From Maricaulis sp. (lineage in GTDB: Bacteria > Pseudomonadota > Alphaproteobacteria > Caulobacterales > Maricaulaceae): 63,234 bases of DNA. Position numbers and translations under genes: made by a program. Shown piece after piece: positions 19,951 through 37,366 of the stretch. Numbering within the stretch: position 1 is the first letter of the stretch; the number at the start of each line of letters is the position of its first letter. The notes under the pieces were generated by a model that saw only the letters and a list, made by a program, of their open reading frames with translations, was not told where the DNA came from and ran no database searches. The DNA lies in NCBI RefSeq assembly GCF_015665295.1, contig NZ_JADFAJ010000006.1, positions 1 through 63,234 on the forward strand, given 5' to 3'.

Positions 19951-19969
19951 TGGGCGATACCCCGTCAGG

Positions 19970-21455: not shown

Positions 21456-22769
21456 ATGAGCAGTTTTTCTCAACGCCTTGGCGTGTCGCAAAAACAATCC
21501 ATCCGGCAGACGCTGTCGCCGCAGATGCAAAAAACCATGCATCTGCTCGGGCTCTCGCAAGACGAGCTCGAGCGGGAGGTTGCGGAGATCTGCGAAGCGA
21601 ACCCGCTGATCACCAACCAGCCGAACTGGTCACGGGCTCGAGCCGGTTCGGCGGCAAACACTGATTGGGCGAGCCGCGCCGAGGCGCCGCGTCATCTCAG
21701 CAGTCATTTGCTGGAGCAGCTCGCTCTTTCCGGCGCAATGCCGACGGTTCGAGACACGGCTAAACAGATCATCGCGCACCTAGCATCCGACGGGCGAATG
21801 GACGCCGACGACTGGGCCGCCCTGTCGACCGCCAGGGCGGCCGACAAGGCGCTCAGGCTCGTGCAGAGTTTCGAACCGGCCGGGGTTGCCGCGCGATCGC
21901 TGGTCGAGTGTTTCCAGCTTCAACTGGATCCGGAACGGGCCGCGTGCCCGCGATGGGCGTGCCTGCTGGCTCATCTGGACGAGCTCGCGACATCGACTGC
22001 CAGCACACTCGCCAGGCGATGCGGAATCGATGAGGTCGAGCTGCGCGCGATGGTCGATCATATCCGCATGCTCGATCCGCATCCTGGGCACCGGTTTGAT
22101 CCGGGCGATCCGATCGAGATCACGCCGGATCTTTGCGCCTGGCTAACCCCAACGGGCGAATGGGCGGTTGACCTTACCTGGGACCCACACGCCGCCTTGG
22201 TCGCGGAGGGGACCTACCGCAACTGGCGATCAAACGCGGCACTGCCTGCCTCCGCCAAAGCGTTCCTGGCCGACAAACAAGCGGAAGCCGACTGGCTCCA
22301 ACGCGCCCTCAAGCAGCGCGGCCAGTCCCTGTTGCGCGTTGCCCGCCTGGCAATCGCACGCCAATACCGCTTCCTGACCGACGGGAGAGAACATCTCGCC
22401 CCGCTGACCATGCGCGAGATCGCCGCAAAACTGGAGCTACACGAGTCGACGGTCAGCCGTGCGGTTGCGCACAAGCACATCCTCACACCACGCGGCGTTC
22501 TGCCGATGCGGAGCTTCTTCTCAACAGCGCTGAGCGAGAATGCCGAGGACGCAAAAACGTCCTCAGCCGCGGTCCGGGCCCGGATCGGTCAGTTGATTGG
22601 CGATGAGGCTACGCCCGGTGCCATGTCCGACAGTGCAATATCAGAGGCATTGCGGGAGATTGGCATTCAGATCGCGCGGCGGTCGGTCGCCAAACACCGT
22701 GAACAGCTGGGCTTGAGAAATTCACGCGACCGGGCGCGCCTCGCCACCTATGCCGTCGCGGCCGCGTGA
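21456..22769 (+). CDS. rpoN: RNA polymerase sigma-54 factor, island-borne copy
   Basis: A 437-aa sigma-54. Region I (residues about 5-50) has the Gln/Leu-rich activator-responsive segment (QTLSPQMQKTMHLLGLSQ, EICEANPLI). The core-binding region is in the middle. The C-terminal RpoN box, which reads the -24 element, is ARRSVAKHRE (about 407-416), against the usual ARRTVAKYRE. Region II is short, making the protein smaller than many alphaproteobacterial RpoN. I chose the ATG at 21456, five bases after GGAGG, rather than the one at 21444. Being next to a kinase/activator pair within the island, it is probably a dedicated second copy; the housekeeping rpoN would be elsewhere. Confidence 0.93.
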   Translation: MSSFSQRLGVSQKQSIRQTLSPQMQKTMHLLGLSQDELEREVAEICEANPLITNQPNWSRARAGSAANTDWASRAEAPRHLSSHLLEQLALSGAMPTVRDTAKQIIAHLASDGRMDADDWAALSTARAADKALRLVQSFEPAGVAARSLVECFQLQLDPERAACPRWACLLAHLDELATSTASTLARRCGIDEVELRAMVDHIRMLDPHPGHRFDPGDPIEITPDLCAWLTPTGEWAVDLTWDPHAALVAEGTYRNWRSNAALPASAKAFLADKQAEADWLQRALKQRGQSLLRVARLAIARQYRFLTDGREHLAPLTMREIAAKLELHESTVSRAVAHKHILTPRGVLPMRSFFSTALSENAEDAKTSSAAVRARIGQLIGDEATPGAMSDSAISEALREIGIQIARRSVAKHREQLGLRNSRDRARLATYAVAAA

Positions 22770-22776
22770 GGCGTGA

Positions 22777-24186
22777 TCAGGCTTTCTCGGACCATTGCTC
22801 GCGCTTGCGGTAGATCGTCGACGGCGCGATTTCGAGCTGTTTGGCCGCTTCGGTGACATTGTCGCTGCACAGCGCGATCGCGTGCTCGATGGCGCGTTTT
22901 TCCACCATCCAGAGCGGTTCAATGCCGGCGGGCGCCGGTCTTGAAGCGACACCCGCATTCACCGCTGAGAATGAAGGCGGAACCGGTTCAACGGAGACGG
23001 GCGGAAAATAGCTCGATTGAGCTTCACCCAGCGATAGGTCGGATGCGTCAATCTCGTCGCCAGCGGCAAGCACGACACAACGCCGCACAAGGTTCTCCAA
23101 CTCACGCACATTGCCGGGCCAATGATGCCGCAAAAGCGCCTGGCGAGAATCTTCAGCGAATTTGAGATCGGCCCGCCCCTCCTCTTCCGCATACCGGCCG
23201 AGAAAAGCATCCGCCAACATCAGGATATCGCCGGCCCGGTCGCGCAAGGGCGGCAGCTCGACGGGAATGACGTTGAGGCGGAAGTAGAGATCCTCCCGCA
23301 ACCGGCCGGCGCGGACCGCAGCCCACGGATCGCGATTGGTCGCCGCAACAATGCGGATGTCGGTCTGCCGGATCCGGCTATCGCCGACGCGCGCGTAAGT
23401 GCCCGTCTGCAGGAAGCGCAGGAGTTTGGGCTGCAGATCGATCGGCATCTCGCCAATCTCGTCCAGGAAAAGCGTACCTCCATTGGCCAGCTCAGCCGCG
23501 CCGGCCCGGTCCGATGTCGCACCGGTGAACGCGCCTTTCACATGACCGAACAACTCGCTCTCGATGAGGTCTTTCGGGATCGCGCCGCAATTGACCGCGA
23601 TGAATGCCCGGCCCGCCCGCCCGCTGGATGTATGGATGGCCCGCGCCGCGAGCTCCTTTCCGGTACCGGTTTCACCTGTAACGAAAATGCCGGCGTTCGA
23701 AGGTGCAGCAGATTCCAACACGCGGTAGACGGCCTGCATCGGCAAGGATGAACCGATGAATTCTGCGAATTGGGTCTTCGGTCTGCTTTGTTCGAGGGCT
23801 TTAACGACCTTCTCGAGCTTGGATTTTTCAACGGCGTTCTTGACCGTCGTGATCAGGCGTTCGGCCCCGAAGGGTTTTACAAGGAAATCCGTCGCACCTT
23901 CACGCATCGCTTCGATCGCCGCGTTGATCGAGCCATTGGCTGTAATGACAACAACCGGCGTCGTGACCTCTGAGGCGCGCCAGGACCGCAGTAGATCCAT
24001 GCCATTGGCATCCGGCAGGTTTAGATCGAGAAGGATGCAGTCCGGACGGCCCGCACCCATTGCCCGTTCGCCAGCGGCCCCGTCCTCGGCGATCTCGATC
24101 GCGGCGGCGTCGCGCTTGAGCTGGGCCTCATAGGTTCGCGCCAGAGACGGGCTGTCTTCGATGATCAGGACACGTCCGATACTCAT
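22777..24186 (-). CDS. NtrC-family sigma-54-dependent response regulator
   Basis: A 469-aa enhancer-binding protein. The receiver domain (1-120) has IIEDS, phospho-acceptor Asp in ILLDLNLPD and Lys in FLVKPF. The AAA+ domain (about 140-370) has Walker A (GETGTGKE), the sigma-54-contact loop GAFTGA intact, Walker B ([12 protein letters not shown]) and an arginine-finger region. A Fis-type helix-turn-helix is at the C-terminus ([19 protein letters not shown]). Its ATG overlaps the TGA of the hybrid kinase gene (ATGA). It should activate sigma-54 promoters; the likely binding sites are the 13-bp dyads upstream of the kinase and polysaccharide operons (inference). Confidence 0.95.
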
Positions 24187-26525
24187 CCGCTTGCTCCCTC
24201 AATCTGCGCCAGACTTGTCTCCGCTGCGGGCAAGAAGAGCTCCGCTGCCCGTTTCAAGTCCGCGATCGAACTGTCGCTCGGGCGGCCCCGGTTGTCGGTA
24301 CTGCAGGCTTGCTCAAGCCGGGCCGCGGCATGCGACAACGCGTCCGCGCCGACATTACTGGCACCGCCTTTGATCGCATGCGCTTCGTACTGAACCTTGG
24401 CCGTATCCCCGGCCAGCAGGCTTTCGGAAATCCGCCCCAACCGCTCGCGCAACTCGCGCACGAAAATGCGAAGCACGAAGGCATAGCCGGCCGCATCGCC
24501 ATCCCATTGCTCGTCGATATGGGCGGCACTCAGAACGATATGATGTGCGGCTTCGGCCCGCGGCAGCCATTTTTCCAGCTCGCGCGAAAGGTCCTTTGAC
24601 CGAATAGGCTTGGTGAGAAACCCATTCATCCCGGCCGCTCGCGTCTGCTTGCGGTTCTCCGACAAGGCATGCGCCGTCAATGCGATGATCGGTGTCGCGT
24701 AACCCGCGGCCCGGATCAGGCGCGAGGCCTCCAGACCGTCCATTACCGGCATGCCGACATCCATAATGATGAGATCGTAAGTCCCGCTGTCGACAGCCTG
24801 AACGGCCGCCGCGCCATCCGCGACAATTTCCGGTTCGAGCCCGAGCTTGGCCAGCATGCTCGCGACCACAGCCGCATTGGTTTCGCTGTCCTCGGCAAGA
24901 AGGACGCGCCCATGCAGGTGCAGCGCAGGTGCCGCAGGGTTGGCATCTTCGGCCTGCTCCCGCTGGCTAAGCACGGCAGGGAGCGTAACACTGAACTTGC
25001 TGCCGGCGCCGAGCAGGCTTGTCGCATCGACCTGACCGCCCATCAGCTCCGCGAGTTCGCGGCTGATGGCGAGGCCAAGCCCGACGCCCTGGCTCACTGC
25101 GCATGGCGAGCCCGAGCCTTGCTCGAACCTGGAAAACAATTTTGGCAAAACATCTTCTGCGATGCCGATTCCGGTGTCGAGCACGATGAAGTTGATCTCC
25201 TGATCCGGCGCAACGCCGCGCAATCGGGCGTCGACCGTAACCCCCCCGTCCGAGGTAAACTTGATCGCGTTGCCGACGAGGTTGAACAGGATTTGCCGAA
25301 CACGCCCCGGATCGCCGATCAGACGAAGATCCGTGGGCAAGGATGCGACCTCGAGTGAAACGCCTTTCTCCGCAGCGGAGTTGGAAAAAATTTCACGTAC
25401 CTGTTCAAGCAGACCATTGGGCGAATAAGGCTCTTCATCCAAATCCACGCGCCCGGATTCGATGTGGCTGATGTCCAGCACTGCATCGATCAAAGTCAAC
25501 AGGCTCTCAGCGGACCGTTCAGCAAGATCGATCAGACGTGCCGTCTCGTCCGCCAGCCCGTCGCGTTTGATAAGGCCGAGCGGGCCGATCACGCCGTTGA
25601 GCGGCGTTCGCATTTCATGGCTCATATTGGCGAGAAACTCGGTCTTGGCGGCGCTTGCCCGCTCCGCTTCTGCCTTCGCCATGCGGAGCTCCGCCTCGGT
25701 TAGCGCCCGCTCCGATACGTCGCGTACAACGCCGTGCACCAGCGTTCGGTCATCCGCCTCGAAGGCGCGCGCATTCACCTCGGTAGGGATTTCAACGCCG
25801 GAGCGATGAATAAAGCGGATATCCATCCGTGCCTCACCCGCCTCCTGGACGGATTTGATCGCGTCTCTCGCCGTTGGGTGATCAGCTTCGGGGTGAAGTC
25901 GGGGCAAGCGCATGCCGACCAAGGCCTGCCGGTCCCAGCCCACGAGCTCTTCAGCGCGCGCGTTCACATCCACAATCTCTCCGTCGAGCGTATGAATGAA
26001 GATCGCATCGCCGGAGCGTTCAAACAAATCGCGATAACGCTGGCGCGACCGCTTCAGCTCCGCTTCATCGGCCTTCTTTTCTGTGATGTCGCGCAGATAG
26101 GCGGTGAAATAGGTCTGGTCTTTCAGATGGACGGGGATGATCGCCAGCTCAACAAGCAATTGCCGACCGCTTGCATGCAGCGCCGGCACCTCGATCCGCT
26201 TGCCCAGCACAGCGTGCTCGCCGCTGGCTAGATACTTCGCCAGACCTGCATCGTGTGCGCCCCGCAGCGCCTCTGGAATGATCAACTCCGCCATGGGCTG
26301 ACCGAGTACAGCGTCGCGCATGTGGCCGAACGTACGCTCGGCGGAGTCGTTGAACTCCACGATCAAACCGTCGGAGTCGATAATGACGATACAATCCAGC
26401 GCCGCCTGCACGAGCGCTGCGCGCAAGGCCGCTTCACGTTCTTCTGTCCTGCGCTCACGCGTTCCCAAGACTTCGCTCCTAGGATTGGTGTCGGCGGGTT
26501 GGCTGTGGCTTTCTGCTCTGCTCAT
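24183..26525 (-). CDS. PAS-PAS hybrid histidine kinase with receiver and HPt domains
   Basis: A 780-aa cytosolic kinase without obvious membrane segments. Order: two PAS domains (about 35-150 and 160-290), HisKA with phospho-His in MSHEMRTPLNG (about 315), HATPase (NLVGNAIKFT, DTGIGI, GVGLGLAI), receiver (IIMDVGMPVMDG; FLTKPI), and C-terminal HPt (HAIKGGASNVGA). It can run the whole His-Asp-His relay and pass phosphate to the NtrC-type protein encoded by the overlapping downstream gene. PAS domains suggest a redox, oxygen or small-ligand signal; no haem or flavin ligand can be assigned. The start at 26525 has GAGGGAGA upstream. Confidence 0.93.
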   Translation of the reverse strand: MSRAESHSQPADTNPRSEVLGTRERRTEEREAALRAALVQAALDCIVIIDSDGLIVEFNDSAERTFGHMRDAVLGQPMAELIIPEALRGAHDAGLAKYLASGEHAVLGKRIEVPALHASGRQLLVELAIIPVHLKDQTYFTAYLRDITEKKADEAELKRSRQRYRDLFERSGDAIFIHTLDGEIVDVNARAEELVGWDRQALVGMRLPRLHPEADHPTARDAIKSVQEAGEARMDIRFIHRSGVEIPTEVNARAFEADDRTLVHGVVRDVSERALTEAELRMAKAEAERASAAKTEFLANMSHEMRTPLNGVIGPLGLIKRDGLADETARLIDLAERSAESLLTLIDAVLDISHIESGRVDLDEEPYSPNGLLEQVREIFSNSAAEKGVSLEVASLPTDLRLIGDPGRVRQILFNLVGNAIKFTSDGGVTVDARLRGVAPDQEINFIVLDTGIGIAEDVLPKLFSRFEQGSGSPCAVSQGVGLGLAISRELAELMGGQVDATSLLGAGSKFSVTLPAVLSQREQAEDANPAAPALHLHGRVLLAEDSETNAAVVASMLAKLGLEPEIVADGAAAVQAVDSGTYDLIIMDVGMPVMDGLEASRLIRAAGYATPIIALTAHALSENRKQTRAAGMNGFLTKPIRSKDLSRELEKWLPRAEAAHHIVLSAAHIDEQWDGDAAGYAFVLRIFVRELRERLGRISESLLAGDTAKVQYEAHAIKGGASNVGADALSHAAARLEQACSTDNRGRPSDSSIADLKRAAELFLPAAETSLAQIEGASG

Positions 26526-26555
26526 GACGGTTCTCCCTCGCACGGAAGAACTGTC

Positions 26556-26571
26556 TGCAAGCCTGAGCCCG
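26556..26571 (-). promoter_or_regulatory. Possible sigma-54 promoter of the kinase-activator operon
   Basis: On the minus strand CGGGCTCAGGCTTGCA has the invariant GG-N10-GC spacing and a perfect -12 element (TTGCA), but only GG of the -24 element TGGCAC. Predicted transcription start is near 26545, 20 bases before the ATG. Alone this is weak; the dyads upstream at matching distance strengthen it and would make the circuit autoregulated. Confidence 0.4.
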
Positions 26572-26636
26572 CCCTGCGAAAACAGACCAGCCACAGCGTC
26601 TCAACGCCTTAGGGGGCGATTCACATCCTGCAAAAA

Positions 26637-26690
26637 ACGCATTTTGCAAAGTCATTGCAATATGCAACGATCATTCTTCGCATATTGCAA
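26637..26690 (-). promoter_or_regulatory. Three dyads, candidate enhancer for the kinase operon
   Basis: Three copies of a 13-base dyad of form YGCA-N3-TGCA: ACGCA-TTT-TGCAA (26637-26649), TTGCA-ATA-TGCAA (26655-26667, perfect palindrome) and TCGCA-TAT-TGCAA (26678-26690). Centres lie about 98, 116 and 139 bases upstream of the predicted start. The region is A/T-rich against its surroundings. It is probably bound by the island's NtrC-type activator. Confidence 0.6.
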
Positions 26691-26714
26691 CCGTTTTTTG
26701 GCTTTATGGATAGG

Positions 26715-28175
26715 CTAGTAGGCACCCTTTGCCATGATCACCGCCAGCGGCGTGCGCGCCAGGATGGCGATATCAGTGAAGAGCGATCGTGTGTTTAGAT
26801 ACTCGACATCCAATTCCACCATGCGCTGGAACGGGATATCTGCCCGGCCGCTCACCTGCCAGATGCCCGTAATGCCTGGCTTACCCGCCAGCCGGCCGCG
26901 ATCCTGTGCCGAATACTTGGCCACTTCGCGCGGTAACGCCGGACGCGGCCCGACGAGCGACATTTCTCCGCGCACCACGTTGAACAGCTGCGGAAGTTCG
27001 TCGATCGAGTATTTGCGGATGAAACGCCCAACCTTGGTGACCCTTGGGTCCTGCTTCAGCTTGAAGGTCACGCCGTCATTGCGATCATTCGCGGACATGA
27101 GCGAGTCGAGGCGTTTCTCAGCATCGGTATACATTGAGCGGAATTTGAGCATCTCGAACGTGTCGCCATTCTTTCCGACCCGCTCCTGCCGGAACAGGAT
27201 CGACCCACGACTTTCCAGCCGGATGGCGAGCGCGGCAAGCAACAGAAGCGGCGACAAACCCGCAATCGCCGTTGTTGCAACGGAGACATCGAGCGCCCGT
27301 TTCAGAGCGTTGCTTATAGAGCGGCGGCGCGCCCCCCGGCGCTTCTGCCAGCCATAGCTCAGCGCCCGGCTCAGGAAGGTAACATTGCCGACGAGATAGC
27401 GCCGCCACATGCGCTGCGGCTCCTGGAGAAGCCGGTAGGCCCATTCCAGCCGAGCCTGCCGCATCCATCGCGGCGCACGCGCCGTGGCCCCGGAAACGAA
27501 ATCGAACAGACCTCCAACGCCCGCGACCAAAGGCGCATCAATCCGCGCCGCCACACGGGCCAGCCAGGTCTCCTGAGCCGGCACGCCCATCGCCACGAAT
27601 AACACATCGGGCTGACAGGCGTTGATGCGTTCGATCATCGCGTCTTCATCCTGGGGTCCGAAATAGCCGTGATAGCTGCCGGCGATCTTAAGCGAGGGTA
27701 TGCGCGCCTTCGCAGCGTTGGCCGTCGCATCAGCCACGCCCGGCCGTCCGCCGAGGAAGAAAACGGATTTGCCCGCCGCAGCCAATGCTTCGCAGAGCGG
27801 GAAGAAGAGATCCGTCCCGTTGAGATCGTCCACCACCGGCTCGCCGCCCAGTCGGCTGGCAATCTCAACGCCAATGCCGTCGGGGAGGACAGCGTCGCAG
27901 GACAGCAGAGCCTGGCGATATTGCCAGTCGCCGGACGCAACATTTGCGCAATGGGCATTCACGAACGCGATGCGCGTCTTGATGCCCCAACTGACACGGG
28001 CCACGAGCGCGTCGACCACCTCGCGCTGACGCATGGCCAAGAGAGGCAAGCCGAGCACATCCACCACCGTGCCAAATCGCTCGTGACAGGAAGTGTGGTC
28101 GATCAAGGCTTGAGGCTGAAAGCGCGCCAAAGGCGCGAGGGCTTGGACATTCGAACTCAAAAACACATCAACCAT
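26715..28175 (-). CDS. Fused WecG/TagA glycosyltransferase and polyprenyl-phosphate sugar transferase
   Basis: A 486-aa fusion of two exopolysaccharide enzymes normally encoded separately. Residues about 30-250 are a WecG/TagA/CpsF (GT26) domain: TRIAFVNAHCANVA, VLPDGIGVEIAS, DLNGTDLFFPL, and DVLFVAMGVPAQETW. From about 290 comes a bacterial sugar transferase (WcaJ/ExoY/HfsE type): one membrane helix (SPLLLLAALAIRL), then LFRQERVGKNGDTFEMLKFRSM, IDELPQLFNVVRGEMSLVGPRP and PGITGIWQVSGR. The second domain would load the first sugar phosphate onto undecaprenyl phosphate and the first would add the next sugar. The ATG at 28175 follows GGAG; the open frame begins 27 bases upstream. Confidence 0.9.
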   Translation of the reverse strand: MVDVFLSSNVQALAPLARFQPQALIDHTSCHERFGTVVDVLGLPLLAMRQREVVDALVARVSWGIKTRIAFVNAHCANVASGDWQYRQALLSCDAVLPDGIGVEIASRLGGEPVVDDLNGTDLFFPLCEALAAAGKSVFFLGGRPGVADATANAAKARIPSLKIAGSYHGYFGPQDEDAMIERINACQPDVLFVAMGVPAQETWLARVAARIDAPLVAGVGGLFDFVSGATARAPRWMRQARLEWAYRLLQEPQRMWRRYLVGNVTFLSRALSYGWQKRRGARRRSISNALKRALDVSVATTAIAGLSPLLLLAALAIRLESRGSILFRQERVGKNGDTFEMLKFRSMYTDAEKRLDSLMSANDRNDGVTFKLKQDPRVTKVGRFIRKYSIDELPQLFNVVRGEMSLVGPRPALPREVAKYSAQDRGRLAGKPGITGIWQVSGRADIPFQRMVELDVEYLNTRSLFTDIAILARTPLAVIMAKGAY

Positions 28176-28323
28176 CAAACAACTCCATATTGGGTTGCTC
28201 AACGGACTTCACAGCCAGGTCCAAACACGTCGGAAGACCCACAATTTACTGATTTATTTATATAATTACTTCTGCGGCGGATTGGGCTGCCGCGCCCGTA
28301 ATCCGAAAATGCGATACGCCGTC

Positions 28324-28357
28324 TCGCGCAATGCGGCAGGGGTCTCGCAGATCGCGG
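28324..28357 (+). promoter_or_regulatory. Candidate enhancer dyads upstream of wzx
   Basis: TCGCG-CAA-TGCGG (28324-28336) and TCGCA-GAT-CGCGG (28345-28357) resemble the dyads upstream of wza and the kinase (compare TCGCA-AGT-TGCGG at 37182). Their centres are about 130 and 109 bases before the predicted wzx transcription start. A weaker match is centred near 28315. GC-rich DNA gives such matches by chance, so confidence is limited. Confidence 0.35.
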
Positions 28358-28433
28358 AACGAAACCGAGAACAATCGCTCGACTGAACCGCCAACCCTTT
28401 CAAACAACTACAAAATCCCTCTGAGCGCGGGAA

Positions 28434-28449
28434 TGGCGCCGGACTTGAA
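28434..28449 (+). promoter_or_regulatory. Possible sigma-54 promoter of the wzx operon
   Basis: TGGC-GCC-GGAC-TTGAA matches the sigma-54 consensus TGGCAC-N5-TTGCA well at -24 and at spacing, but has A where the -12 C is expected. Predicted start near 28460, 18 bases before the ATG at 28478, the same geometry as the wza promoter. Confidence 0.4.
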
Positions 28450-28477
28450 CTCTGTGGATCAGCGAAAGGACGCGACA

Positions 28478-29752
28478 ATGATCCACACGACCAGAAACAT
28501 CCTAGGGCGTCACACCCTCCTGAAGAATGTCGGCTGGCTTGCTTCAGGCGAGATGGTGTCACGGATCACGCGCCTCCTTGCCGCGATCGCGCTGGCCCGC
28601 ATGCTCACACCGCTTGAGTTCGGCGCCGCGGCGATTGCCATCACCGTCTTCGAGTTGGTTCGAGTGTTCAATCAAAACGGCGTCGGTGCCGCAGTCATCG
28701 CTTCAAAGAATTCAGCGCTGCCCGCGCTGATCCGAACCGCGCATCTGGCCGGATGGGTGACCTGCTTCTTGCTGGCCGGCGTACAGTGTCTGGTCGGCTA
28801 CATCGTCGCACGCTCGACCGGTTCATCCGAGATCGGCTGGATGATCGTCTGCCTGGCCGGCGTCTACCTCATCATGCCTCCGGGCATACCGCACGGCTGG
28901 GCGTTGCAGCGCGCACAGAACATGCGCCGCCTTGCCACGGTCAATGCAGTCCAGGTCTCAATCGACAATCTGCTGACTGCTGGGCTCGCTCTGACCGGGT
29001 TCGGCGCCTGGGCAATAGTCCTGCCAAAGCTCGTGACGGCGCCGATCTGGCTGGTCGGCGTTATGTGGGGGCGCCCTTGGCGGCCAGACCGCGGGGCCGG
29101 TTTCGCGTCGCCGCGCAAGCTTCTGTCCTTTGCAGGACCCGTGCTAGGTTCGGAACTCCTGAATGCGATGCGCCTGCATGTCGACAAGCTGATCATCGGC
29201 GCCGTCTGCGGACTCGAATTGCTGGGCATCTACTATTTTGCCTTCAATGCCGGGCTCGGCCTGTCTTCCGCGCTGTCGATCGCCTTCAACGGCGCCTTCT
29301 ATCCCAATCTCTGCGAAGCGTTCCGCCGGACAGGTTCCGCCGTCAGTGCGTTCAACAAAGGGCTAAAGACGGCGGGCGCCCCGCTCGCCGCCCTCTTCCT
29401 GATCCAGGCCTCGCTGGTCCCGATCTACGTGCCGATCGTCTTCGGCATGGAGTGGGCTTTCGCGGTCCCGCTGATCGCCATTCTGTGCCTCAGCGGCCCA
29501 GCCAGAATTCTCGCTGACGGGTGCGCGCTTCTGCTACGCGCCAGCGGTCGGCCTCGCATGGAATTGCTTGCGGTCAGTGCCGTGACCCTCACGTGCCTTG
29601 GCGGGCTGGTGATGGGCGCCCAGGCCGGCCTGATCGCCGCCGCCATCGCCCTCACCCTCGCCGCCACGCTTACCGCGCTCGCCCTGTACCCGGTCGTTCA
29701 GACGCTATGCAGCGAGGACGCCCCGTGCCTTATGCCCAAGGAGGCCTCATGA
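28478..29752 (+). CDS. Wzx-type oligosaccharide flippase
   Basis: A 424-aa integral membrane protein with about 12 hydrophobic segments, in the polysaccharide transporter branch of the MOP flippases (LLKNVGWLASGEMVSRITRLLAAIALARML near the N-terminus is characteristic, given here only as the region 8-37). It would flip lipid-linked repeat units across the inner membrane for polymerisation by the Wzy-like protein. The ATG at 28478 follows AAAGGA. Its stop overlaps the start of the following glycosyltransferase (ATGA), so wzx and two GT2 genes form one operon. Confidence 0.88.
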   Translation: MIHTTRNILGRHTLLKNVGWLASGEMVSRITRLLAAIALARMLTPLEFGAAAIAITVFELVRVFNQNGVGAAVIASKNSALPALIRTAHLAGWVTCFLLAGVQCLVGYIVARSTGSSEIGWMIVCLAGVYLIMPPGIPHGWALQRAQNMRRLATVNAVQVSIDNLLTAGLALTGFGAWAIVLPKLVTAPIWLVGVMWGRPWRPDRGAGFASPRKLLSFAGPVLGSELLNAMRLHVDKLIIGAVCGLELLGIYYFAFNAGLGLSSALSIAFNGAFYPNLCEAFRRTGSAVSAFNKGLKTAGAPLAALFLIQASLVPIYVPIVFGMEWAFAVPLIAILCLSGPARILADGCALLLRASGRPRMELLAVSAVTLTCLGGLVMGAQAGLIAAAIALTLAATLTALALYPVVQTLCSEDAPCLMPKEAS

Positions 29753-30687: not shown

Positions 30688-31673
30688 CCTTGCCCGCCAT
30701 TTCCGTCATCATGCCGGTCTATAATGTCGAGCGCTATGTCGAGATCGCCGCCAAAAGCGTCCTGGCGCAAACCTTCGAAAACTTCGAGCTGATCATCGTC
30801 GATGACGGCGGCACGGATCGCTCGATCGATTTCTGCCGGAAGTTCGTCGACCCGCGCATTCGCATCATCAGTCAGGAGAATCGCGGGCTCGCCGGCGCTC
30901 GCAATACCGGCATCCGCTATGCCCGCGCCGAGATCATCGCGTTCCTCGACTCCGACGATCTCTGGCACCCGGAGAAGCTCGATCGGCATTTTTCTCATCT
31001 GCGCCGGCGGCCCGAGGTGGGCGTGAGCTATTCCGGCGCCCGACTCATCGACGATGACGGCAGGGATATCGGTATCGACCAGGCACCAAAGCTCACCGGG
31101 ATTCAGTCGAAGGACGTTTATCTTCGCAATCCGGTCAGCAATGGTTCGACACCCGTGATCCGACGGGCAGCGTTCGATGAGATTGCACGGCCGTCTTTCC
31201 GCCCCGGCGAACAGGTCTGGTTCGACGAGAACCTGCGCCAGTCTGAAGACATCGATTGCTGGCTGCGGATCGCACTTCTGACCGGCTGGACCTTCGAAGG
31301 CATTCCCGGCCCGCTCACCGCCTATCGCATCAATGAATCCGGCCTCTCAGCCGATGTCGTCAGGCAATTCGAGAGCTGGGTTTATGTCCGCGACAATGTC
31401 CGGACGCTGGCGCCCAGCTTCGCACGACGCTGGGAAGCCTCTGCCGAAGCCTTCCAGCTGCGCTATCTCGCGCGACGCGCAATCCGCATGCGCGACCGCG
31501 GCCTCGCGATCGAGCTGGCCTTCAAGTCCGTCCTGAAAGCACCGCTCGCCGTGCTGAAGGAGCCAGTGAAGACAGCAACCACGCTCGCGGCTGCCTTGGC
31601 ACTCCGGCTGATGCCGGCACGGCTGTACGGCAAGCTCGAATCCGCGGCCCTTGCCAGCGCCACATCCAGCTGA
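30684..31673 (+). CDS. Family 2 glycosyltransferase
   Basis: A 329-aa GT2 enzyme, clearly related to the preceding gene (VIMPVYNVERYVEI, LIIVDDGGTDRSI, FLDSDDLWHP), probably an old tandem duplication. The acidic segment is QSEDIDCWLRIALL near residue 190. A hydrophobic C-terminal segment (TATTLAAALALRL) may be membrane-associated. It is last in the wzx-GT2-GT2 operon and converges on the GT4 gene with 21 bases between stops. The sugar donor is not predictable. Confidence 0.9.
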   Translation: MTLPAISVIMPVYNVERYVEIAAKSVLAQTFENFELIIVDDGGTDRSIDFCRKFVDPRIRIISQENRGLAGARNTGIRYARAEIIAFLDSDDLWHPEKLDRHFSHLRRRPEVGVSYSGARLIDDDGRDIGIDQAPKLTGIQSKDVYLRNPVSNGSTPVIRRAAFDEIARPSFRPGEQVWFDENLRQSEDIDCWLRIALLTGWTFEGIPGPLTAYRINESGLSADVVRQFESWVYVRDNVRTLAPSFARRWEASAEAFQLRYLARRAIRMRDRGLAIELAFKSVLKAPLAVLKEPVKTATTLAAALALRLMPARLYGKLESAALASATSS

Positions 31674-31694
31674 CGGCGCGGAGCCGGTGCGCAC

Positions 31695-32888
31695 CTAGAT
31701 AATGGATTGATAAATCCTGAGGTGCGCATCGGCGATGGCCGCCCAATTATACTGAGCGTCCACTTTCCGCGCCCCTTGTTGGCCCATGCGCTTGGCACGT
31801 GAGGGGCGCCCGAGAAGATCGGTGATGGCCGTTGCAACGGCCGTCGCGTCCTGGCGCACCAGAACACCATCCTCTCCATCCTCGATTACCGACCGCATGG
31901 CGGGAATGTCGGCTGCGATCACGGGTTTGTCGAACGACCAGGCCTCAAGGAAGACAACCCCCAGGCTTTCCTCGGTCGAGGGCACACACAACAGATCGCA
32001 CGCAGCCAGCACGGACTTCTTGTCAGCCCCGCTCAGTGTACCGGTGATGATGATACGCGGATCGGGCCGAGACCGGAATGCAACCTCGGCTTCGGGCGTC
32101 ACAGGTCCGGCGAAGACCAGTCGCGCCTCAGGCTGCTGCGCCCAGATCTGCGACGCGGCATCGAGCAGCGTGCGATAGCCTTTGTATTCCGCTGTACGGC
32201 CCAGAAAGAGGATGACAGGCGCCTCCCCGAGCTCGAACCGGGCCCTGAGCGCTACCGGGTCCGGCACATCGCTCTCAAAGAGCGGCGCCATCGGGCAGAC
32301 ATGCACCCGCGAGGACTGCGCGCCCTGCCCGATCAGCCATTCGCGCTCATACTCCGTCATGGCGATGAGCGCGTCCGTCTTGCGGTAAAGATGTTTGAAG
32401 CCCGGCGAAGACCAAGCGGTGCCGTCCGGCTTGGTCGTATGCGCCAGCGGCGTAAAGACAAAGGGTTGGCCGAGCGACTGAAGAGCCTCTGCGCCCGGTG
32501 TGAAGCCGTTGTAGATCGCATGCACAATCGATGCGTTCCCGACGAGGCGGCGGAACGGTTCTGTGATCACCGCGCGTGCCGCCCGGGCGAACAGGAGGCG
32601 CGCCAGCCGGGATTTCGGCGCCGCCTTCGCGAGGGGTGAAAGCAACGCTCGGGCTGCGCCTGCCGGCGCCAGTGTATGCACAGCGACATCGCCGTCTTCG
32701 ATGCGCGCTGCTCTCGCGGTGGCGAAGGCGAAATCGGTTGGCGCTTCTTCAGTCGAGCAACACCGCCCAACCTCGATAGGGACATGCCGGGCGAGTTCAT
32801 GTGCCAAGCGGCGCGAATGCAATTCGGCTCCACCGAGACCGGGCCAATAGCGCGGCACGAAGAGGAAGGGGCGAATGGGTCGGGTCAT
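31695..32888 (-). CDS. Family 4 glycosyltransferase
   Basis: A 397-aa GT4 retaining glycosyltransferase (GT-B fold). The N-terminal domain opens with PRYWPGLGGAELHSRRLAHEL, in which the Gly-rich loop binds the donor. The C-terminal domain has VILFLGRTAEYKGYRTLLDA and the E-x7-E-like motif in PSTEESLGVVFLEAWSFDKPV. The ATG at 32888 overlaps the stop of the polymerase gene (ATGA). It is the last gene of the wza operon and is probably one of the assembly transferases for the repeat unit. Confidence 0.92.
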   Translation of the reverse strand: MTRPIRPFLFVPRYWPGLGGAELHSRRLAHELARHVPIEVGRCCSTEEAPTDFAFATARAARIEDGDVAVHTLAPAGAARALLSPLAKAAPKSRLARLLFARAARAVITEPFRRLVGNASIVHAIYNGFTPGAEALQSLGQPFVFTPLAHTTKPDGTAWSSPGFKHLYRKTDALIAMTEYEREWLIGQGAQSSRVHVCPMAPLFESDVPDPVALRARFELGEAPVILFLGRTAEYKGYRTLLDAASQIWAQQPEARLVFAGPVTPEAEVAFRSRPDPRIIITGTLSGADKKSVLAACDLLCVPSTEESLGVVFLEAWSFDKPVIAADIPAMRSVIEDGEDGVLVRQDATAVATAITDLLGRPSRAKRMGQQGARKVDAQYNWAAIADAHLRIYQSII

Positions 32889-34207
32889 GATGCCCTCGCT
32901 GCAGCAATGATGGATGAACGCCTCTCGGCGGCCTCGCGCATGGCAATTCCCATGATCACAAGGCCCGGCCAGAATAGGTAGGTCAGGATTTCCAGGTTCT
33001 CGCCGACGGTGAAAAGAACCAGCAGAATGGTGATCGCCAAGGCGGCCCGCCCCATCCGGCTGGACAGGGACAGAAGCGCGAATTCCAGAAGGCTCCACAG
33101 CAGCGGAATGGCCAATGCCGCAACACCGACAATCCCCTTCACGAATAAAAGCCCGAACCAGGTGTGGTGGCTGCCGATCGGCATGTACTCGACATAGTGG
33201 GGCCCACGCTCGACCACGCCATGCCCCCAGACCGGCGCCTCATGCCACCAGCGGTCGATGGCGATACGCCCAAGCGCCTCGCGAACCCGTGTGGAGTTCG
33301 CCCGCATGCCGCGAAAGCCGTCATAGGCCGCGCCCAGCTGGGCCAGGAGGACAGGCGAGAAAAGGCCGGCAAAGAAGACCGGCACGGCCGCAGCGAGCCA
33401 CAGAATGCTGCGGCGAAGCTGCGATATGCCGAATGCGCTTGGCCAGACCAGAACCGCGGTCACCAATCCCAGGCGTGATTTCGACAACACGATGATCGCA
33501 ATGGCTGAAACAATCCCGATAATGCGCCAGACCACGCGCCGGTCTTCGATCGCCAGGATCAAGTAGAGATTGCCGATCAGGGCGGCCGCCGGCGACCAGG
33601 GCGTGAAATAGCGCCAGCGCGGAAGCCCGTCTGCCGGATCCATGGAGTAGAGCTGGACCGCGAAAAACTCCGGCCCCGGTCCGCCGATCGCTTTGAGCGG
33701 CGAGACGAAGAGCACTTCGGGCAATCCCGCCATCGGCGCGAGATAAAGGACCGGGGTCAGCAGGAGGGAGATGAGCGCGGTCAGACCTGTGGCGCGAATG
33801 ACCGTTTCGAAGCGGATATCCAGACAAGCCCCGGCCAAGATGAACATCGCAAAAAGTGCCCAGCCTTTGGCCCAGCCGATTGTCGACTTGACGGTCTGGC
33901 CTGCGGAAAGTTCATAGCTCCAATGTCCCCCCAGCAGCGCGATCTGCATAAGCCCCATGCCGGCAATCCAAAACCAGACGCCGATCGGCACGGGCGGTGG
34001 TGCGGGGCGCGGCGTGGTTGGCGTGCGGACGTATTTGCGCACCAGGACGATGGCCGTGAGCAAGACGCCCAGGACCGGTCCCAGAACGTAGAGCCCTCCG
34101 AGGAAGTAGACCGGCCAGGTGCCCGCAAGCGCCAGCGCGACTAGATAATCTTCCACAGGGCGCGGATCAGCGGCAGGCGCAGCCACAGCAACAATACTCC
34201 CATGCAA
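32885..34207 (-). CDS. O-antigen polymerase/ligase-like (Wzy) membrane protein
   Basis: A protein of up to 440 aa with about 10-12 hydrophobic helices and a large periplasmic loop (roughly residues 290-370, RGMRANSTRVREALGRIA then VWGHGVVERGP), as in Wzy polymerases and WaaL-like ligases. The loop segment WWHEAPVWGHG is typical of the family. The start is uncertain: ATG 34207 overlaps wzz by 67 bases, while a GTG at 34156 overlaps by only 16. Within the locus it should polymerise flipped repeat units. Wzy families have low sequence identity, so the assignment rests on topology, loop motif and context. Confidence 0.8.
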   Translation of the reverse strand: MHGSIVAVAAPAADPRPVEDYLVALALAGTWPVYFLGGLYVLGPVLGVLLTAIVLVRKYVRTPTTPRPAPPPVPIGVWFWIAGMGLMQIALLGGHWSYELSAGQTVKSTIGWAKGWALFAMFILAGACLDIRFETVIRATGLTALISLLLTPVLYLAPMAGLPEVLFVSPLKAIGGPGPEFFAVQLYSMDPADGLPRWRYFTPWSPAAALIGNLYLILAIEDRRVVWRIIGIVSAIAIIVLSKSRLGLVTAVLVWPSAFGISQLRRSILWLAAAVPVFFAGLFSPVLLAQLGAAYDGFRGMRANSTRVREALGRIAIDRWWHEAPVWGHGVVERGPHYVEYMPIGSHHTWFGLLFVKGIVGVAALAIPLLWSLLEFALLSLSSRMGRAALAITILLVLFTVGENLEILTYLFWPGLVIMGIAMREAAERRSSIIAAARAS

Positions 34208-35610
34208 TAGAGGAAAAACCCGCCGAATGCGGCGAGTGCGGCAATCTTCTTGGACGGCGATGATGGGCTTTCCGGACGCGCCGGCGGTTCCAGCAATTGC
34301 GCCAGCGGGTATGACGCGAAAACGTCCGCGCGCGACATATCCAGCCGCGCCAGCGCGGAAGCGAAGACGGTCTCGGCCACCTGGTGCTCGCGGAGCAAGG
34401 CGTCCAGACGCGCCGCGACCGGTGCAAGCGCTTCAACGCGCTGCTCATTTCTGAAAAGCCGATCCTGCAGCGAGCGGGCTTCCGCGCGCGCACCCTCGGC
34501 TTCCGCCGAAAGATCGACGACTTGGCGCAGAAGCTGGGCGCGCTCATCGTCCAGATTGATATCGGCTAGACGCAACAGCCCGTAGCCGGCGACGCCGAGC
34601 AAGGCTTCGCCACGTGCAGCCAAGGCATCGACCAGACCGGCGTGGCGCTCGGTCTCGGCGCGCATCTCTGGATGGTTGCGGCCGTACATGTTTTCGAAGC
34701 TGGCGATTTGCGCCGCGCTCGCAGCTAATTGCTCGATCAGCGCCTCGAAGACGGCATCGCCTCGCAAGACAAGTACACGCGCGGCGACTTCCTCCGGCAA
34801 GTCGATGAGCTCACCAAGCCTTCCTGATCGATTGGACAGAGCCCGCGCCCGGTCGAGGGTGACAGCGAGCGTGCGTTCCAATGCGTCGGTCTCGGCGACC
34901 AGGGATTGGTATTGATCGAGCGAGATCAGCCCGCTCTCAGCCTGGAATTCGATGACCGCCTGGCGCGTTGCGATAACATTGCGCTCATAGCCCGCAAGGC
35001 TTTCTTGATACGCCGAATCCCGCGCATCCAGCTCCTCCTGGCGAAGCGCATCGAGATTGGCTTGGAAGGCCGACAAAAGGGCGTTGGCGGACGCATAGAC
35101 CCGGTCGGGATCTGTCTCTGTCATGCGCACGTAGATCAGCGGCGTTTGATCGACCAGACGAACACGAGCCGTCGCAAAGTCTCGGGCAGGCATACCGGAT
35201 TCCGCAGCGGCGGCGCCGCGCACGCGGTCAGACTGAAGTAGCCGCTTGTAGTTTTCCGTCGGGCTCAAGGAGGCGCTGGAGAAGGCGGAGGACGTCGCCG
35301 ATGTGGCCTGGCCGAGGTCGGTCAGATTGACGCTCGCCCCGGCGCCGGATCCGGGAAGGATGAGGGTGAAGCCGCTGACATAGGTGCGCGGCGAGGTGAC
35401 GTAATAGGTCGCAGCGATACCACCGAAAAAGACCGCACCCACGACGAGCACAAACAGATATCTGAGCCAGCGGCGGGGTCCGCCGGAGCCCACGATCAGG
35501 CGCCCTAAGAGCGATCTGCGCGCGATCATGTAGTCCGTCTCACGCTGCGAATTGCGAGGGTCGGCGTGAGGCGGTGGCTCCGGCGGATTGGGAATCAGCG
35601 GGCGCTTCAT
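34141..35610 (-). CDS. Wzz/GumC-type polysaccharide chain-length protein
   Basis: A 489-aa co-polymerase. A cytoplasmic N-terminus of about 45 residues leads to the first membrane helix (YLFVLVVGAVFFGGIAATYYV); then comes a long periplasmic region with coiled coil (about 180-400, including the RNHPEM-containing GRNHPEMRAETERH), and a second helix near the C-terminus (LAAFGGFFLYCMGVLLLWL). There is no Walker-type tyrosine-kinase domain, so regulation by BY-kinase phosphorylation is not built in. It would set chain length and couple Wzy to the Wza channel. Its ATG overlaps the wza stop (ATGA). Confidence 0.88.
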   Translation of the reverse strand: MKRPLIPNPPEPPPHADPRNSQRETDYMIARRSLLGRLIVGSGGPRRWLRYLFVLVVGAVFFGGIAATYYVTSPRTYVSGFTLILPGSGAGASVNLTDLGQATSATSSAFSSASLSPTENYKRLLQSDRVRGAAAAESGMPARDFATARVRLVDQTPLIYVRMTETDPDRVYASANALLSAFQANLDALRQEELDARDSAYQESLAGYERNVIATRQAVIEFQAESGLISLDQYQSLVAETDALERTLAVTLDRARALSNRSGRLGELIDLPEEVAARVLVLRGDAVFEALIEQLAASAAQIASFENMYGRNHPEMRAETERHAGLVDALAARGEALLGVAGYGLLRLADINLDDERAQLLRQVVDLSAEAEGARAEARSLQDRLFRNEQRVEALAPVAARLDALLREHQVAETVFASALARLDMSRADVFASYPLAQLLEPPARPESPSSPSKKIAALAAFGGFFLYCMGVLLLWLRLPLIRALWKII

Positions 35611-36839
35611 CGCGCGGCACCGCTGAGAATAGTCAGATTGATGGCCGGAGTCAGAACGCCGCTGAAGGCGCTAATGACATCACGCACATTGGTAACGTGG
35701 CTGTCATAGCAAGCCAGCGCATCGCCCGGCAGCAAGATCGGGTTGAACGCGTCGCGGTCGGCACGGCGCACTAGGCCCTCTATCGACCGCGCTATGACTT
35801 CGCTTTGGCCGGTGATTGGATTGCGCGAGATCAGTACCGCCCAGCGATCTGCATTGGTCGCCTGAGTACCGCCGACGCAATTCGCCGTCACCAGCGCCTG
35901 CAGGAAGCGCGTTCCATAGGGCAGGCTGGTGCTTTGGCTATTGATCGCGGACTGGGAGTTCGACGAAGCGGGTGTCGTCAGGTTGGACATGAAGACCCGG
36001 ATACCCGGCACAGTGATGCGGCTCGGGCGCGCCAAGGCTTCCTGGAAACAGCCGCGCGAGGGGACATGAATCTGATCGCCGGTCGCCAGCATCGGATCGG
36101 CCACGCGCTGGCCCGTGAAAGCGCCGGACAGGTCGTAGATCTGCCGTTGGCCGTCGCGCACGAGCACAACATGACGGACATCCGCATCAGGACGAAGGCC
36201 CGCGGCTGAAGACAGCGCAGAAACCAGCGTTCGACCGGAGGTGACATCGCCTTGGGCTTCGACGCGGGAGTTTTGCACCAGCTCGGCATTGCGATCGTTC
36301 AGCAAGAGATCACCGGGCTGAAAAACCGCGCCGGAGACATGCACCTGGACCGGTGCCCATTGCGCTACATCGAGGTCGAGCTGAAGGAAGCCGGCACGGT
36401 ACATCCCTTCTTCCACGAACATCCGCGCGACGAGCGCCTCGACCACTTCAACTGTGAAGCCGGCGGCCCGGATCGGTGGAAGGTGCGGCACGGTCAGTGT
36501 GCCGTCTGGCGCCACGATATACGTCCCTTCGAACGCCTCTCCGGCCGGCAATGTCATCCGCAGCATGTCGCCGGGCGAGAGTGGAGGCATGGCCAATGCG
36601 GCGCTTGCCGCAAAGGCCACGCTCTCCGGGGGGGACATCGGTAAATCCGCATCCGCGCAGCCAGCGAGATCGCCGTAGCGCCCCTGCCCGCTGAGCGGAA
36701 TCTCGCGAACACCGGTCATCGGGCGGCGAGCCGAGGTATAGCCTTGCGTTGTCAGATCGACAGTGTTGCGTGGCTCCTCGAAGGCAGTCGCGCAGGATGC
36801 AAGCGCAAGGGCGAGGATCGGGATGAGGCGGCGGCACAT
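35607..36839 (-). CDS. Wza-type polysaccharide export lipoprotein
   Basis: A 410-aa outer-membrane lipoprotein with lipobox LALASC at about residue 16. The polysaccharide export domain is seen in LSPGDMLRMTLPAGEAF and APDGTLTVPHLPPIRAAG (about 90-130), followed by SLBB-like repeats (VHVSGAVFQPGDLLL; GLRPDADVRHVVLVRDG; GDQIHVPSRGC). A Ser/Asn-rich insertion and further domains follow. It forms the export channel for the polymer. It is second in an operon behind a 78-aa gene and overlaps wzz by four bases. It is comparable in role to HfsD of Caulobacter holdfast export. Confidence 0.9.
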   Translation of the reverse strand: MCRRLIPILALALASCATAFEEPRNTVDLTTQGYTSARRPMTGVREIPLSGQGRYGDLAGCADADLPMSPPESVAFAASAALAMPPLSPGDMLRMTLPAGEAFEGTYIVAPDGTLTVPHLPPIRAAGFTVEVVEALVARMFVEEGMYRAGFLQLDLDVAQWAPVQVHVSGAVFQPGDLLLNDRNAELVQNSRVEAQGDVTSGRTLVSALSSAAGLRPDADVRHVVLVRDGQRQIYDLSGAFTGQRVADPMLATGDQIHVPSRGCFQEALARPSRITVPGIRVFMSNLTTPASSNSQSAINSQSTSLPYGTRFLQALVTANCVGGTQATNADRWAVLISRNPITGQSEVIARSIEGLVRRADRDAFNPILLPGDALACYDSHVTNVRDVISAFSGVLTPAINLTILSGAAR

Positions 36840-36842
36840 CGA

Positions 36843-37079
36843 TCAGATCCCGTGGGCCGGTCGGCTCGCCAGGGCGTCGGCGATATAGGCGGCAAGTTCG
36901 CGCGCCATCTTTGGGCAATTGCAGTCAATAGTCTTAATCGTCGTTTCGCCGTCGGGACGACCTTCCACGAAAACGCTGCGCGATGCCGGTCGCTCGTAAG
37001 CAAGCTTGAGATAGTCGAACAAGGCGCGGTCGAATTGGCGCGATTGGCGGGGCGATGTGATTTTGAAATCTGTACGCAT
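36843..37079 (-). CDS. Small protein heading the wza operon, unknown function
   Basis: A 78-aa soluble protein that I do not recognise. It is charged and probably helical, with CNCPKMARELAAYIADAL in the C-terminal half holding two close cysteines. A perfect AGGAGGT ribosome site lies six bases before the ATG, and a sigma-54 promoter ends only 26 bases upstream, so it is real and is the first gene translated from the wza-wzz-wzy-GT4 operon. The gap to wza is 3 bases. It could be a regulator or accessory protein of polysaccharide export. Confidence 0.75.
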   Translation of the reverse strand: MRTDFKITSPRQSRQFDRALFDYLKLAYERPASRSVFVEGRPDGETTIKTIDCNCPKMARELAAYIADALASRPAHGI

Positions 37080-37104
37080 GACGAACCTCCTGGGTTTAGG
37101 AGGC

Positions 37105-37119
37105 GCAAGCTCGGGGCCA
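37105..37119 (-). promoter_or_regulatory. Sigma-54 promoter of the wza operon
   Basis: On the minus strand TGGCCCC-GAGC-TTGC matches the -24/-12 consensus TGGCACG-N4-TTGC with two mismatches and exact spacing (GG-N10-GC). The predicted transcription start is about 37093, leaving a 14-base leader that contains the AGGAGGT ribosome site. This is the best sigma-54 promoter in the island. Confidence 0.75.
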
Positions 37120-37181
37120 GCGCTGACCGATCCCAGAGATTCATAATTTCAACGACTTAGATTCGTGCGGCGCGAGCTTGT

Positions 37182-37236
37182 TCGCAAGTTGCGGATTGCA
37201 GACTGCAAATCGAGGAAGAAGCCTCGCATTTTGCGA
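37182..37236. promoter_or_regulatory. Three dyads, candidate enhancer between wza operon and membrane gene
   Basis: TCGCA-AGT-TGCGG (37182-37194), TTGCA-GAC-TGCAA (37196-37208, perfect arms) and TCGCA-TTT-TGCGA (37224-37236, arms extend to CTCGCA/TGCGAG). Centres are about 95, 109 and 137 bases upstream of the predicted wza start, close to the 98, 116 and 139 seen for the kinase operon. They may also serve the divergent gene at 37367. Confidence 0.65.
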
Positions 37237-37334: not shown

Positions 37335-37366
37335 GCTGTGTCTACCAGTCAGTTTCAGGAAACAGC

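What the first reader, a model, noticed from the sequence alone, without database searches (positions are those of the whole stretch)
21456..37119. Self-contained sigma-54 circuit controlling exopolysaccharide genes
The island carries RpoN (RpoN box ARRSVAKHRE), a hybrid kinase with receiver and HPt, an NtrC-type activator with intact GAFTGA, and -24/-12 promoters with upstream dyads in front of its own operons. Having the sigma factor, the activator, the sensor and the targets in one transferable unit would let a new host switch the polymer on without using its own regulators. I do not know this arrangement as a described system.
Basis: inference. Interest (0 to 1): 0.9.

Follow-up and report, generated by a model that had tools for sequence, protein, structure and literature searches.

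The report
Mobile polysaccharide island with private sigma-54
An 18-kb genomic island beside a histidine-tRNA gene in a marine Maricaulis bacterium carries surface-polysaccharide genes with their own sensor, LuxO-like activator, binding sites and a second, fast-evolving sigma-54 factor; the arrangement is real, but several relatives carry the same gene cluster with only the ordinary sigma-54.

Summary
The genome has two rpoN genes; the island copy (RpoN2) is divergent, accessory, and shares an altered RpoN box (RRS-AKH) with four relatives. The unit is bounded by a 49-nt direct repeat of the tRNA-His 3' end (19967-20015 / 38073-38121), with near-empty sites in some congeners, so it is a genomic island (no integrase found in it). 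The activator is LuxO-like. Exact TTGCA-N3-TGCAA operators, the published LuxO type, lie upstream of the kinase-activator and export operons: 2 of 3 copies in the genome. The kinase has a FixL-like PAS, receiver and HPt.

Independence from host regulators is not shown. Of 150 genomes of the order, 14 have the LuxO-like activator (10 with the syntenic EPS cluster); only 3 of the 14 have a second rpoN, so the others presumably use RpoN1. The island's export promoter matches one upstream of the genome's flgK.

Precedents: Vibrio fischeri Syp, Cereibacter RpoN/activator pairs, rpoN2 on the Mesorhizobium symbiosis ICE. Best called a new variant: a Syp-like locus on a tRNA-bounded island with its own sigma-54.

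The parts
19967..20015 (.). left attachment-like repeat: copy of the tRNA-His 3' end
   Evidence: 49-nt direct repeat, 94% identical to 38073-38121, spacing 18106
20183..21175 (-). NAD-dependent nucleotide-sugar epimerase
   Evidence: PF01370 1.6e-47
21456..22769 (+). RpoN2, second sigma-54, RpoN box IARRSVAKHRE (open frame from 21444)
   Evidence: PF00309, PF04963, PF04552; second of two copies; clade of 5 RpoN2 99/98
22777..24186 (-). LuxO-like response regulator / sigma-54 activator, GAFTGA intact
   Evidence: PF00158, PF00072, PF02954; best NCBIfam NF041946 LuxO 554 of 800 bits; best PDB 5ep0 LuxO
24183..26525 (-). hybrid histidine kinase PAS-PAS-HisKA-HATPase-REC-HPt, probably soluble; PAS1 FixL-like
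   Evidence: open frame reaches 26594 (GTG), ATG at 26525 conserved
26555..26571 (-). -24/-12-like promoter of the kinase-activator operon
   Evidence: GG-N8-TTGCAG in 4 of 4 islands
26655..26667 (.). LuxO-type operator, exact TTGCAATATGCAA
   Evidence: each of 4 islands has sites here with at most 1 mismatch
26678..26690 (.). second operator, 1 mismatch, 23 bp from the first
26715..28202 (-). WecG/TagA glycosyltransferase fused to initiating sugar phosphotransferase
   Evidence: PF03808, PF02397
28434..28449 (+). promoter-like site of the wzx-GT operon, TGGCGCCGGACTTGAA (-12 is GA, not GC)
   Evidence: TGGCGCCGGANTTGAA in 4 of 4 islands
28478..29752 (+). Wzx-type flippase (start inferred; open frame from 28331)
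   Evidence: PF13440, PF01943
29521..31673 (+). two GT2 glycosyltransferases
   Evidence: PF00535
31695..33098 (-). GT4-type glycosyltransferase
   Evidence: PF13692, PF00534
32885..34207 (-). Wzy-like polymerase
   Evidence: PF04932 below cut-off, 25.7 of 31.7 bits
34141..35610 (-). chain-length determinant-like protein
   Evidence: weak TIGR03007 45.5 of 278.9 bits
35607..36839 (-). polysaccharide export protein (Wza-like)
   Evidence: PF02563, PF22461
37104..37120 (-). -24/-12 promoter of the export operon, CTGGCCCCGAGCTTGCG
   Evidence: CTGGCCC-N4-CTTGCG in 4 of 4 islands
37196..37208 (.). LuxO-type operator, exact TTGCAGACTGCAA; a second one upstream has 2 mismatches
37367..38101 (+). island-end ORF, no family
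   Evidence: no Pfam or PHROGs match; remnant in G007
38073..38121 (.). right attachment-like repeat, 3' end of tRNA-His
38080..38156 (-). tRNA-His, integration site
   Evidence: ARAGORN, Rfam RF00005

Best explanation
It is a genomic island in Maricaulis, once integrated at the 3' end of tRNA-His, that carries a Wzx/Wzy-type surface polysaccharide locus under LuxO/SypG-style control plus a specialised second sigma-54. A kinase with a FixL-like PAS, probably soluble, senses a cytoplasmic cue (inferred: oxygen, NO or redox) and passes phosphate through its receiver and HPt to the LuxO-like activator (inferred from domains). The activator binds TTGCA-N3-TGCAA sites about 90-120 bp upstream of -24/-12 promoters (conservation of sites shown; binding inferred) and opens sigma-54 RNA polymerase at three operons: its own kinase-activator operon (positive feedback), the export/polymerase operon and, through weaker sites, the flippase/glycosyltransferase operon. 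RpoN2 most likely serves as an added sigma-54 dedicated to these promoters, on top of an older circuit that, in relatives with one rpoN, runs with the housekeeping RpoN1.
For: Two rpoN in the genome; RpoN1 in 41 of 41 genomes, full-length RpoN2 in own plus 3 of 18 congeners. RpoN2 clade 99/98. The 5 full-length RpoN2 found (window, G009, G004, G005, G142) all lie in this cluster; a second rpoN match in 3 of 14 genomes with the LuxO-like gene vs 1 of 136 without, Fisher 0.0025. Exact operators: 8 of 12 in the four Maricaulis carriers fall in the islands; 15 in 15 other congeners. Promoter-like sites conserved 4 of 4 at three operons. In G142 rpoN2 itself has an exact operator upstream. GAFTGA in 17 of 17. 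Codon position 3 differs more than 1 and 2 in 6 of 6 RpoN2 pairs. att-like repeats and near-empty sites. FixL is the best PDB match of PAS1, and the column of FixL's heme ligand is His in 11 of 11 kinases that align there.
Against: No expression or binding data. Seven EPS clusters in single-rpoN genomes have LuxO-type operators, so RpoN2 is not necessary for this kind of circuit. The export promoter is of the type found upstream of flgK. Operators upstream of rpoN2 in Maricaulis are degenerate (best 1 mismatch, in G005), and in G142 the -24/-12-like site lies only about 10 bp from the operator. The four islands are homologous, so operator counts are not independent. FixL's distal Arg is one residue off. 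No operator with at most 1 mismatch precedes wzx in the window.
Confidence: 0.6

Rival explanations
1. RpoN1 does the work: the housekeeping sigma-54 drives the island promoters and RpoN2 is a redundant or decaying paralog.
For: 11 of 14 genomes with the LuxO-like gene have one rpoN match; LuxO-type operators without rpoN2; rpoN2 in G011 is interrupted while its LuxO-like neighbour is intact; the export promoter resembles the flgK one; RpoN2 diverges faster (45-62% identity vs 78-85% for RpoN1).
Against: RpoN2 is open and exactly 437 codons in 4 of 4 Maricaulis islands with all domains and codon position 3 bias; box RRS-AKH kept in 5 of 5 across two genera.
Confidence: 0.25
2. RpoN2 is orthogonal: it reads only island promoters and only with the LuxO-like activator, insulating the island from host sigma-54 as Cereibacter RpoN paralogs are insulated.
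For: Shared box substitutions, fast divergence, atypical -12 at wzx; precedent for cognate pairs (passages of PMC11999139; PMC3538637).
Against: The atypical wzx -12 (TTGAA) is also seen in four single-rpoN genomes; the export promoter is of the flgK type; by eye the three promoters share no common -11 base.
Confidence: 0.3
3. A vertically inherited, chromosomal EPS locus that only looks like an island.
For: No integrase in the island by Pfam; GC 62.2% vs 63.5% for the rest of the window; right end at the same site in G000, G004 and G009.
Against: tRNA 3'-end repeats at both ends, absent from 9 of 9 opened non-carriers at that site, different place in G005.
Confidence: 0.08

Closest known systems
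Vibrio fischeri syp locus with SypF and SypG
   Same: Polysaccharide locus turned on by a phosphorelay through the HPt domain of SypF to SypG, a LuxO-related sigma-54 activator (passages of PMC10162802, and PMC12369376)
   Different: No sigma-54 gene in the locus (recalled); published SypG site TTCTCANNNTGMDWN differs from the island's LuxO-type site; here the kinase has a FixL-like PAS
LuxO (Vibrio quorum sensing)
   Same: Activator is closest to LuxO by NCBIfam and PDB; operator fits published TTGCAWWWTGCAA, the export one with a GAC spacer
   Different: Below the LuxO model cut-off (554 of 800 bits); no Qrr RNA in 15000-45000; candidate targets are EPS operons
Cereibacter sphaeroides RpoN paralogs with cognate activators
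   Same: Alphaproteobacterial sigma-54 paralogs each tied to one activator and gene set (passages of PMC11999139)
   Different: nif, flagella and xrpA there; polysaccharide on a tRNA-bounded island here; specificity untested here
Mesorhizobium loti R7A rpoN2/nifA2 on ICEMlSymR7A
   Same: A mobile element carrying sigma-54, its activator and its targets; island copy essential, chromosomal copy dispensable for nitrogen fixation (passages of PMC3538637)
   Different: 502-kb ICE, NifA, nitrogen fixation
PrsK/PrsR of PEP-CTERM/exosortase systems
   Same: Kinase plus sigma-54 response regulator beside EPS genes (recalled; listing)
   Different: PrsR model missed (374.5 of 502.6 bits); no exosortase match in the genome

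Membership tests
Sigma-54 (RpoN) | Activator-interacting, core-binding and DNA-binding domains; equivalog cut-off | tested here: met
Sigma-54 (RpoN) | Canonical RpoN box ARRTVAKYR | tested here: not met
   ARRSVAKHR; T to S and Y to H in 5 of 5 RpoN2; canonical in 30 of 30 RpoN1 rows examined, of 41 genomes. A variant box; the domain itself is present
LuxO | NCBIfam NF041946 cut-off (800 bits) | tested here: not met
   553.9 bits, so filed as LuxO-like
LuxO | GAFTGA, phospho-acceptor Asp, Walker motifs | tested here: met
   17 of 17 sequences
LuxO | TTGCAWWWTGCAA operators upstream of targets | tested here: met
   26655-26667 fits exactly; 37196-37208 fits except for its GAC spacer
LuxO | Qrr sRNA targets | tested here: inconclusive
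   none in window 15000-45000; rest of genome not searched
Syp-type locus | EPS locus encoding HPt hybrid kinase and sigma-54 response regulator that act on its own promoters | tested here: inconclusive
   anatomy and conserved sites present; action on the promoters not testable here
Syp-type locus | Orthology to SypF/SypG | not tested
   no SypF or SypG sequence was compared
PEP-CTERM PrsK/PrsR | PrsR model and exosortase | tested here: not met
tRNA-integrated genomic island | Direct repeat of tRNA 3' end at both ends | tested here: met
tRNA-integrated genomic island | Unoccupied site in relatives | tested here: met
   DUF6491 match to tRNA-His about 154 bp in G016, 168 bp in G010
tRNA-integrated genomic island | Integrase in the element | tested here: not met
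   two tyrosine-recombinase matches in the genome, both on other contigs

The most novel reading that the evidence does not exclude
The island carries a truly orthogonal sigma-54: RpoN2, with its RRS-AKH box, transcribes only the island's operons with the LuxO-like activator, so that the polymer circuit works in any recipient regardless of its own RpoN. Its fast evolution reflects continual re-tuning away from the host sigma-54.
Probability: 0.3. Interest if true: 0.78.

Novelty: new variant of a known kind. Interest (0 to 1): 0.56.

Why it matters
It joins two known ideas, LuxO/SypG-style control of a polysaccharide and a sigma-54 tied to one activator, in one small island. The order offers a natural experiment: the same cluster with the same type of operator exists with and without the extra sigma factor, so what a dedicated sigma-54 adds can be tested directly. 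It also suggests LuxO-type operators at EPS operons outside vibrios; my searches for Maricaulis/Hyphomonas with LuxO (listings and abstract starts only) listed no paper whose title or abstract start describes this.

Tried and rejected
Consensus scan of -24/-12 sites over the window: no excess over random sequence, rejected as evidence by itself and replaced by comparison of four islands. PEP-CTERM control: rejected. Qrr RNA: none in 15000-45000. RpoN2-specific promoter motif: in R2-plus modules 11 of 11 scored regions hold a GG-N10-GC site scoring 6 or more; in R2-minus modules 4 of 10 do (R2-minus export regions fetched later were only looked at by eye). Of the five kinase regions aligned only G108 reached 6, at another place than the conserved TTGCA. 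This looks like a difference, but the R2-plus sites are nearer to the canonical motif, not further, so it does not show a private code. TTGAA at the wzx -12 as RpoN2 signature: rejected, seen in four single-rpoN genomes G085, G080, G108, G076. Third genome-wide operator (C13:18614): upstream of an HU-family gene, taken as chance. Named-genome scan gave six loci: three are the congener islands, three are RpoN with canonical boxes. The tree warns of long branches; only the RpoN2 clade, not its root position, is used. The dyad binomial ignores relatedness of islands. No structure was predicted.

On recheck I changed: promoter spacings (N4, N8), the G029 distance, one refutation sentence, two membership rows to inconclusive, and confidence in the best explanation from 0.62 to 0.60 because of the short operator spacing in G142.
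Full report
What the sequence holds. The window is contig C19 of a 3.16-Mb genome. The genus is Maricaulis by inference: two congener contigs, G009:C43 and G005:C1, have the lengths of contigs titled Maricaulis sp. (153938 and 132136 bases). Between 20.2 and 38.1 kb lie an epimerase, rpoN2, a LuxO-like activator, a hybrid kinase with receiver and HPt, a fused WecG/sugar-phosphate transferase, a flippase, glycosyltransferases, a weak Wzy, a chain-length-like protein and an export protein.

Is rpoN a second copy? Yes: two in the genome. In 41 genomes (own plus 40 relatives) every one has the housekeeping copy; six have a second match: own, G004, G005 and G009 with a full-length divergent copy, G011 with an interrupted one, and G029 with a partial match about 2.4 kb from its RpoN1. 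In 150 genomes of the order four have two matches: G000, G004, G142, G029. The five full-length RpoN2 (window, G009, G004, G005, G142) share RRS[VI]AKHR, whereas 30 of 30 RpoN1 rows that I examined, out of 41 genomes and one of them partial, have RRTVAKYR. The RpoN2 form one clade, 99/98, in a tree of 37 rows with long branches. RpoN2 is 45-62% identical among Maricaulis islands, against 78-85% for RpoN1 of the same genomes; the LuxO-like neighbour is 85-91% identical to the window's. RpoN2 still looks selected: codon position 3 differs most, position 2 least, in 6 of 6 pairs.

Is it an island? A 49-nt direct repeat, 94% identical, lies at 19967-20015 and 38073-38121; the right copy is the 3' end of tRNA-His. 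I opened this site in ten congeners, about 20 kb each. In none of the nine that lack a full island did tblastn (E 1e-6) find rpoN2, activator, kinase or export gene there. Measured from match ends, DUF6491 and tRNA-His are about 154 bp apart in G016 and 168 bp in G010, 0.9-1.8 kb in G001, G007 and G012, and 4-6 kb (other DNA) in G018, G015, G003 and G014. G007 keeps a remnant of the island-end ORF. In G005 the island lies on another contig than the tRNA-His/M48 site. In G004 a degenerate repeat (7 of 41 mismatches) lies between tRNA-His and the island end, and G005's tRNA-His site has a second copy 2 kb away. In G009 only one copy was seen in the range fetched, so its left end is not shown. 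No integrase was found in the island; the genome's two tyrosine-recombinase matches are elsewhere. So integration in the past is well supported; present mobility is not.

The regulatory sites. The activator's best family and structure matches are LuxO. The published LuxO operator is TTGCAWWWTGCAA (passages of PMC10162802). The pattern TTGCANNNTGCAA occurs 3 times in the whole genome and its reversed control 0 times; two of the three lie upstream of the kinase and export operons, the third before an HU-family gene. In four island carriers 8 of 12 exact sites lie in the islands; the 15 other congeners have 15 in all, and the reversed control gives 5 in the 18 congeners. One of the 15, in G011, lies near polysaccharide genes. 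Each island has at least two sites at both operons with at most one mismatch, except that the window's second export site has two mismatches. Downstream, CTGGCCC-N4-CTTGCG is kept in 4 of 4 at the export operon, GG-N8-TTGCAG in 4 of 4 at the kinase operon, and TGGCGCCGGANTTGAA in 4 of 4 before wzx. The wzx site has GA where GC is usual; M. loti NifA-regulated promoters such as TTGGCACGAGTTTTGAA show the same (passages of PMC3538637).

Relatives without the extra sigma factor. LuxO-like activators above 500 bits occur in 14 of 150 genomes of the order; the next score is 441. With the window and G004, I had the neighbourhoods of all 14. Ten hold the syntenic EPS cluster: G000, G004, G142, G085, G104, G076, G080, G108, G125, G103; G152 (at a contig end) and G093 show fragments only, G052 and G115 none. 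GAFTGA is intact in 17 of 17 sequences: these 14 plus G009, G005 and G011. A second rpoN match is present in 3 of the 14 and in 1 of the other 136 (Fisher 0.0025). Seven EPS clusters therefore occur with one rpoN, each with exact or one-mismatch operators. Five of them (G085, G104, G076, G080, G108) share a TTGCA element at the kinase operon without a GG at -24. In G142 rpoN2 sits at the other end of the cluster with an exact operator before it and a -24/-12-like site only about 10 bp further on, which hints at activator-controlled rpoN2 there. In Maricaulis the sites before rpoN2 are degenerate.

Does RpoN2 read a private code? Not shown. CTGGCNCNNNNCTTGC occurs at 7 places in the genome, its reversed control at 4; one, CTGGCCCGCCGCTTGC, lies about 200 bp upstream of flgK. 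The single-rpoN clusters have -24 elements further from the consensus, not nearer, and TTGAA at wzx is seen in four of them too.

The signal. The kinase has no strong membrane segment (highest 19-residue hydropathy 1.73 in the window, up to 2.01 in relatives, a crude measure). PAS1 matches FixL heme domains best (3.5e-15). The column of FixL's heme ligand (which residue that is, is recalled) is His in 11 of 11 kinases where it aligns; G125 has a gap there; FixL's distal Arg is one residue off. A heme-based gas or redox input is therefore an inference.

Known systems. V. fischeri Syp is the closest in logic; Cereibacter RpoN paralogs with cognate activators and M. loti rpoN2 on an ICE cover the private-sigma and mobile-unit sides (passages). 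I found no paper describing a sigma-54 gene inside a LuxO-controlled polysaccharide locus in searches; apart from the passages named, only listings and abstract starts were seen. The library lacks most subscription papers.

Verdict. Observation confirmed and extended; interpretation partly supported; new variant of a known kind.

Noticed in passing
window 19967-38156 and L121-L130: The tRNA-His 3' end is a variable site in Maricaulis: four of nine opened non-carriers hold 4-6 kb of other DNA between it and DUF6491, and G005 has a second repeat copy 2 kb away.
   Followed up: partly
L048 9110-10152 (G011:C130): An interrupted rpoN reading frame beside an intact LuxO-like activator and a GAF-type hybrid kinase with HPt; the exact operator of that genome is on another contig between sugar-transferase-like and WecG-like genes (L062:9578).
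   Followed up: partly
L049 10082-13879 (G029): A partial second sigma-54 DNA-binding domain about 2.4 kb from the housekeeping rpoN in another family of the order.
   Followed up: no
L061:9675 (G016:C1:88674): Exact TTGCAATATGCAA with no island gene found within the fetched 20 kb in a congener without the island.
   Followed up: no
L105:16407 and L106:16710: Exact LuxO-type operators about 5 kb beyond the LuxO-like gene in G052 and G115, where no EPS cluster match was found; target genes not examined.
   Followed up: no
window 41463-42674: Protein with three beta/gamma-crystallin stretches and an inhibitor I36-like match, next to an AsmA-family protein; matched in 8 of the 10 congener loci.
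   Followed up: no
window 8160-10435: Two adjacent sulfotransferase-like genes beside an ABC transporter gene and a TonB-dependent receptor.
   Followed up: no
window 12781-14058: DinB_2 plus FGE-sulfatase domain protein, the layout of EgtB-type sulfoxide synthases (recalled), and two DUF2336 genes nearby.
   Followed up: no
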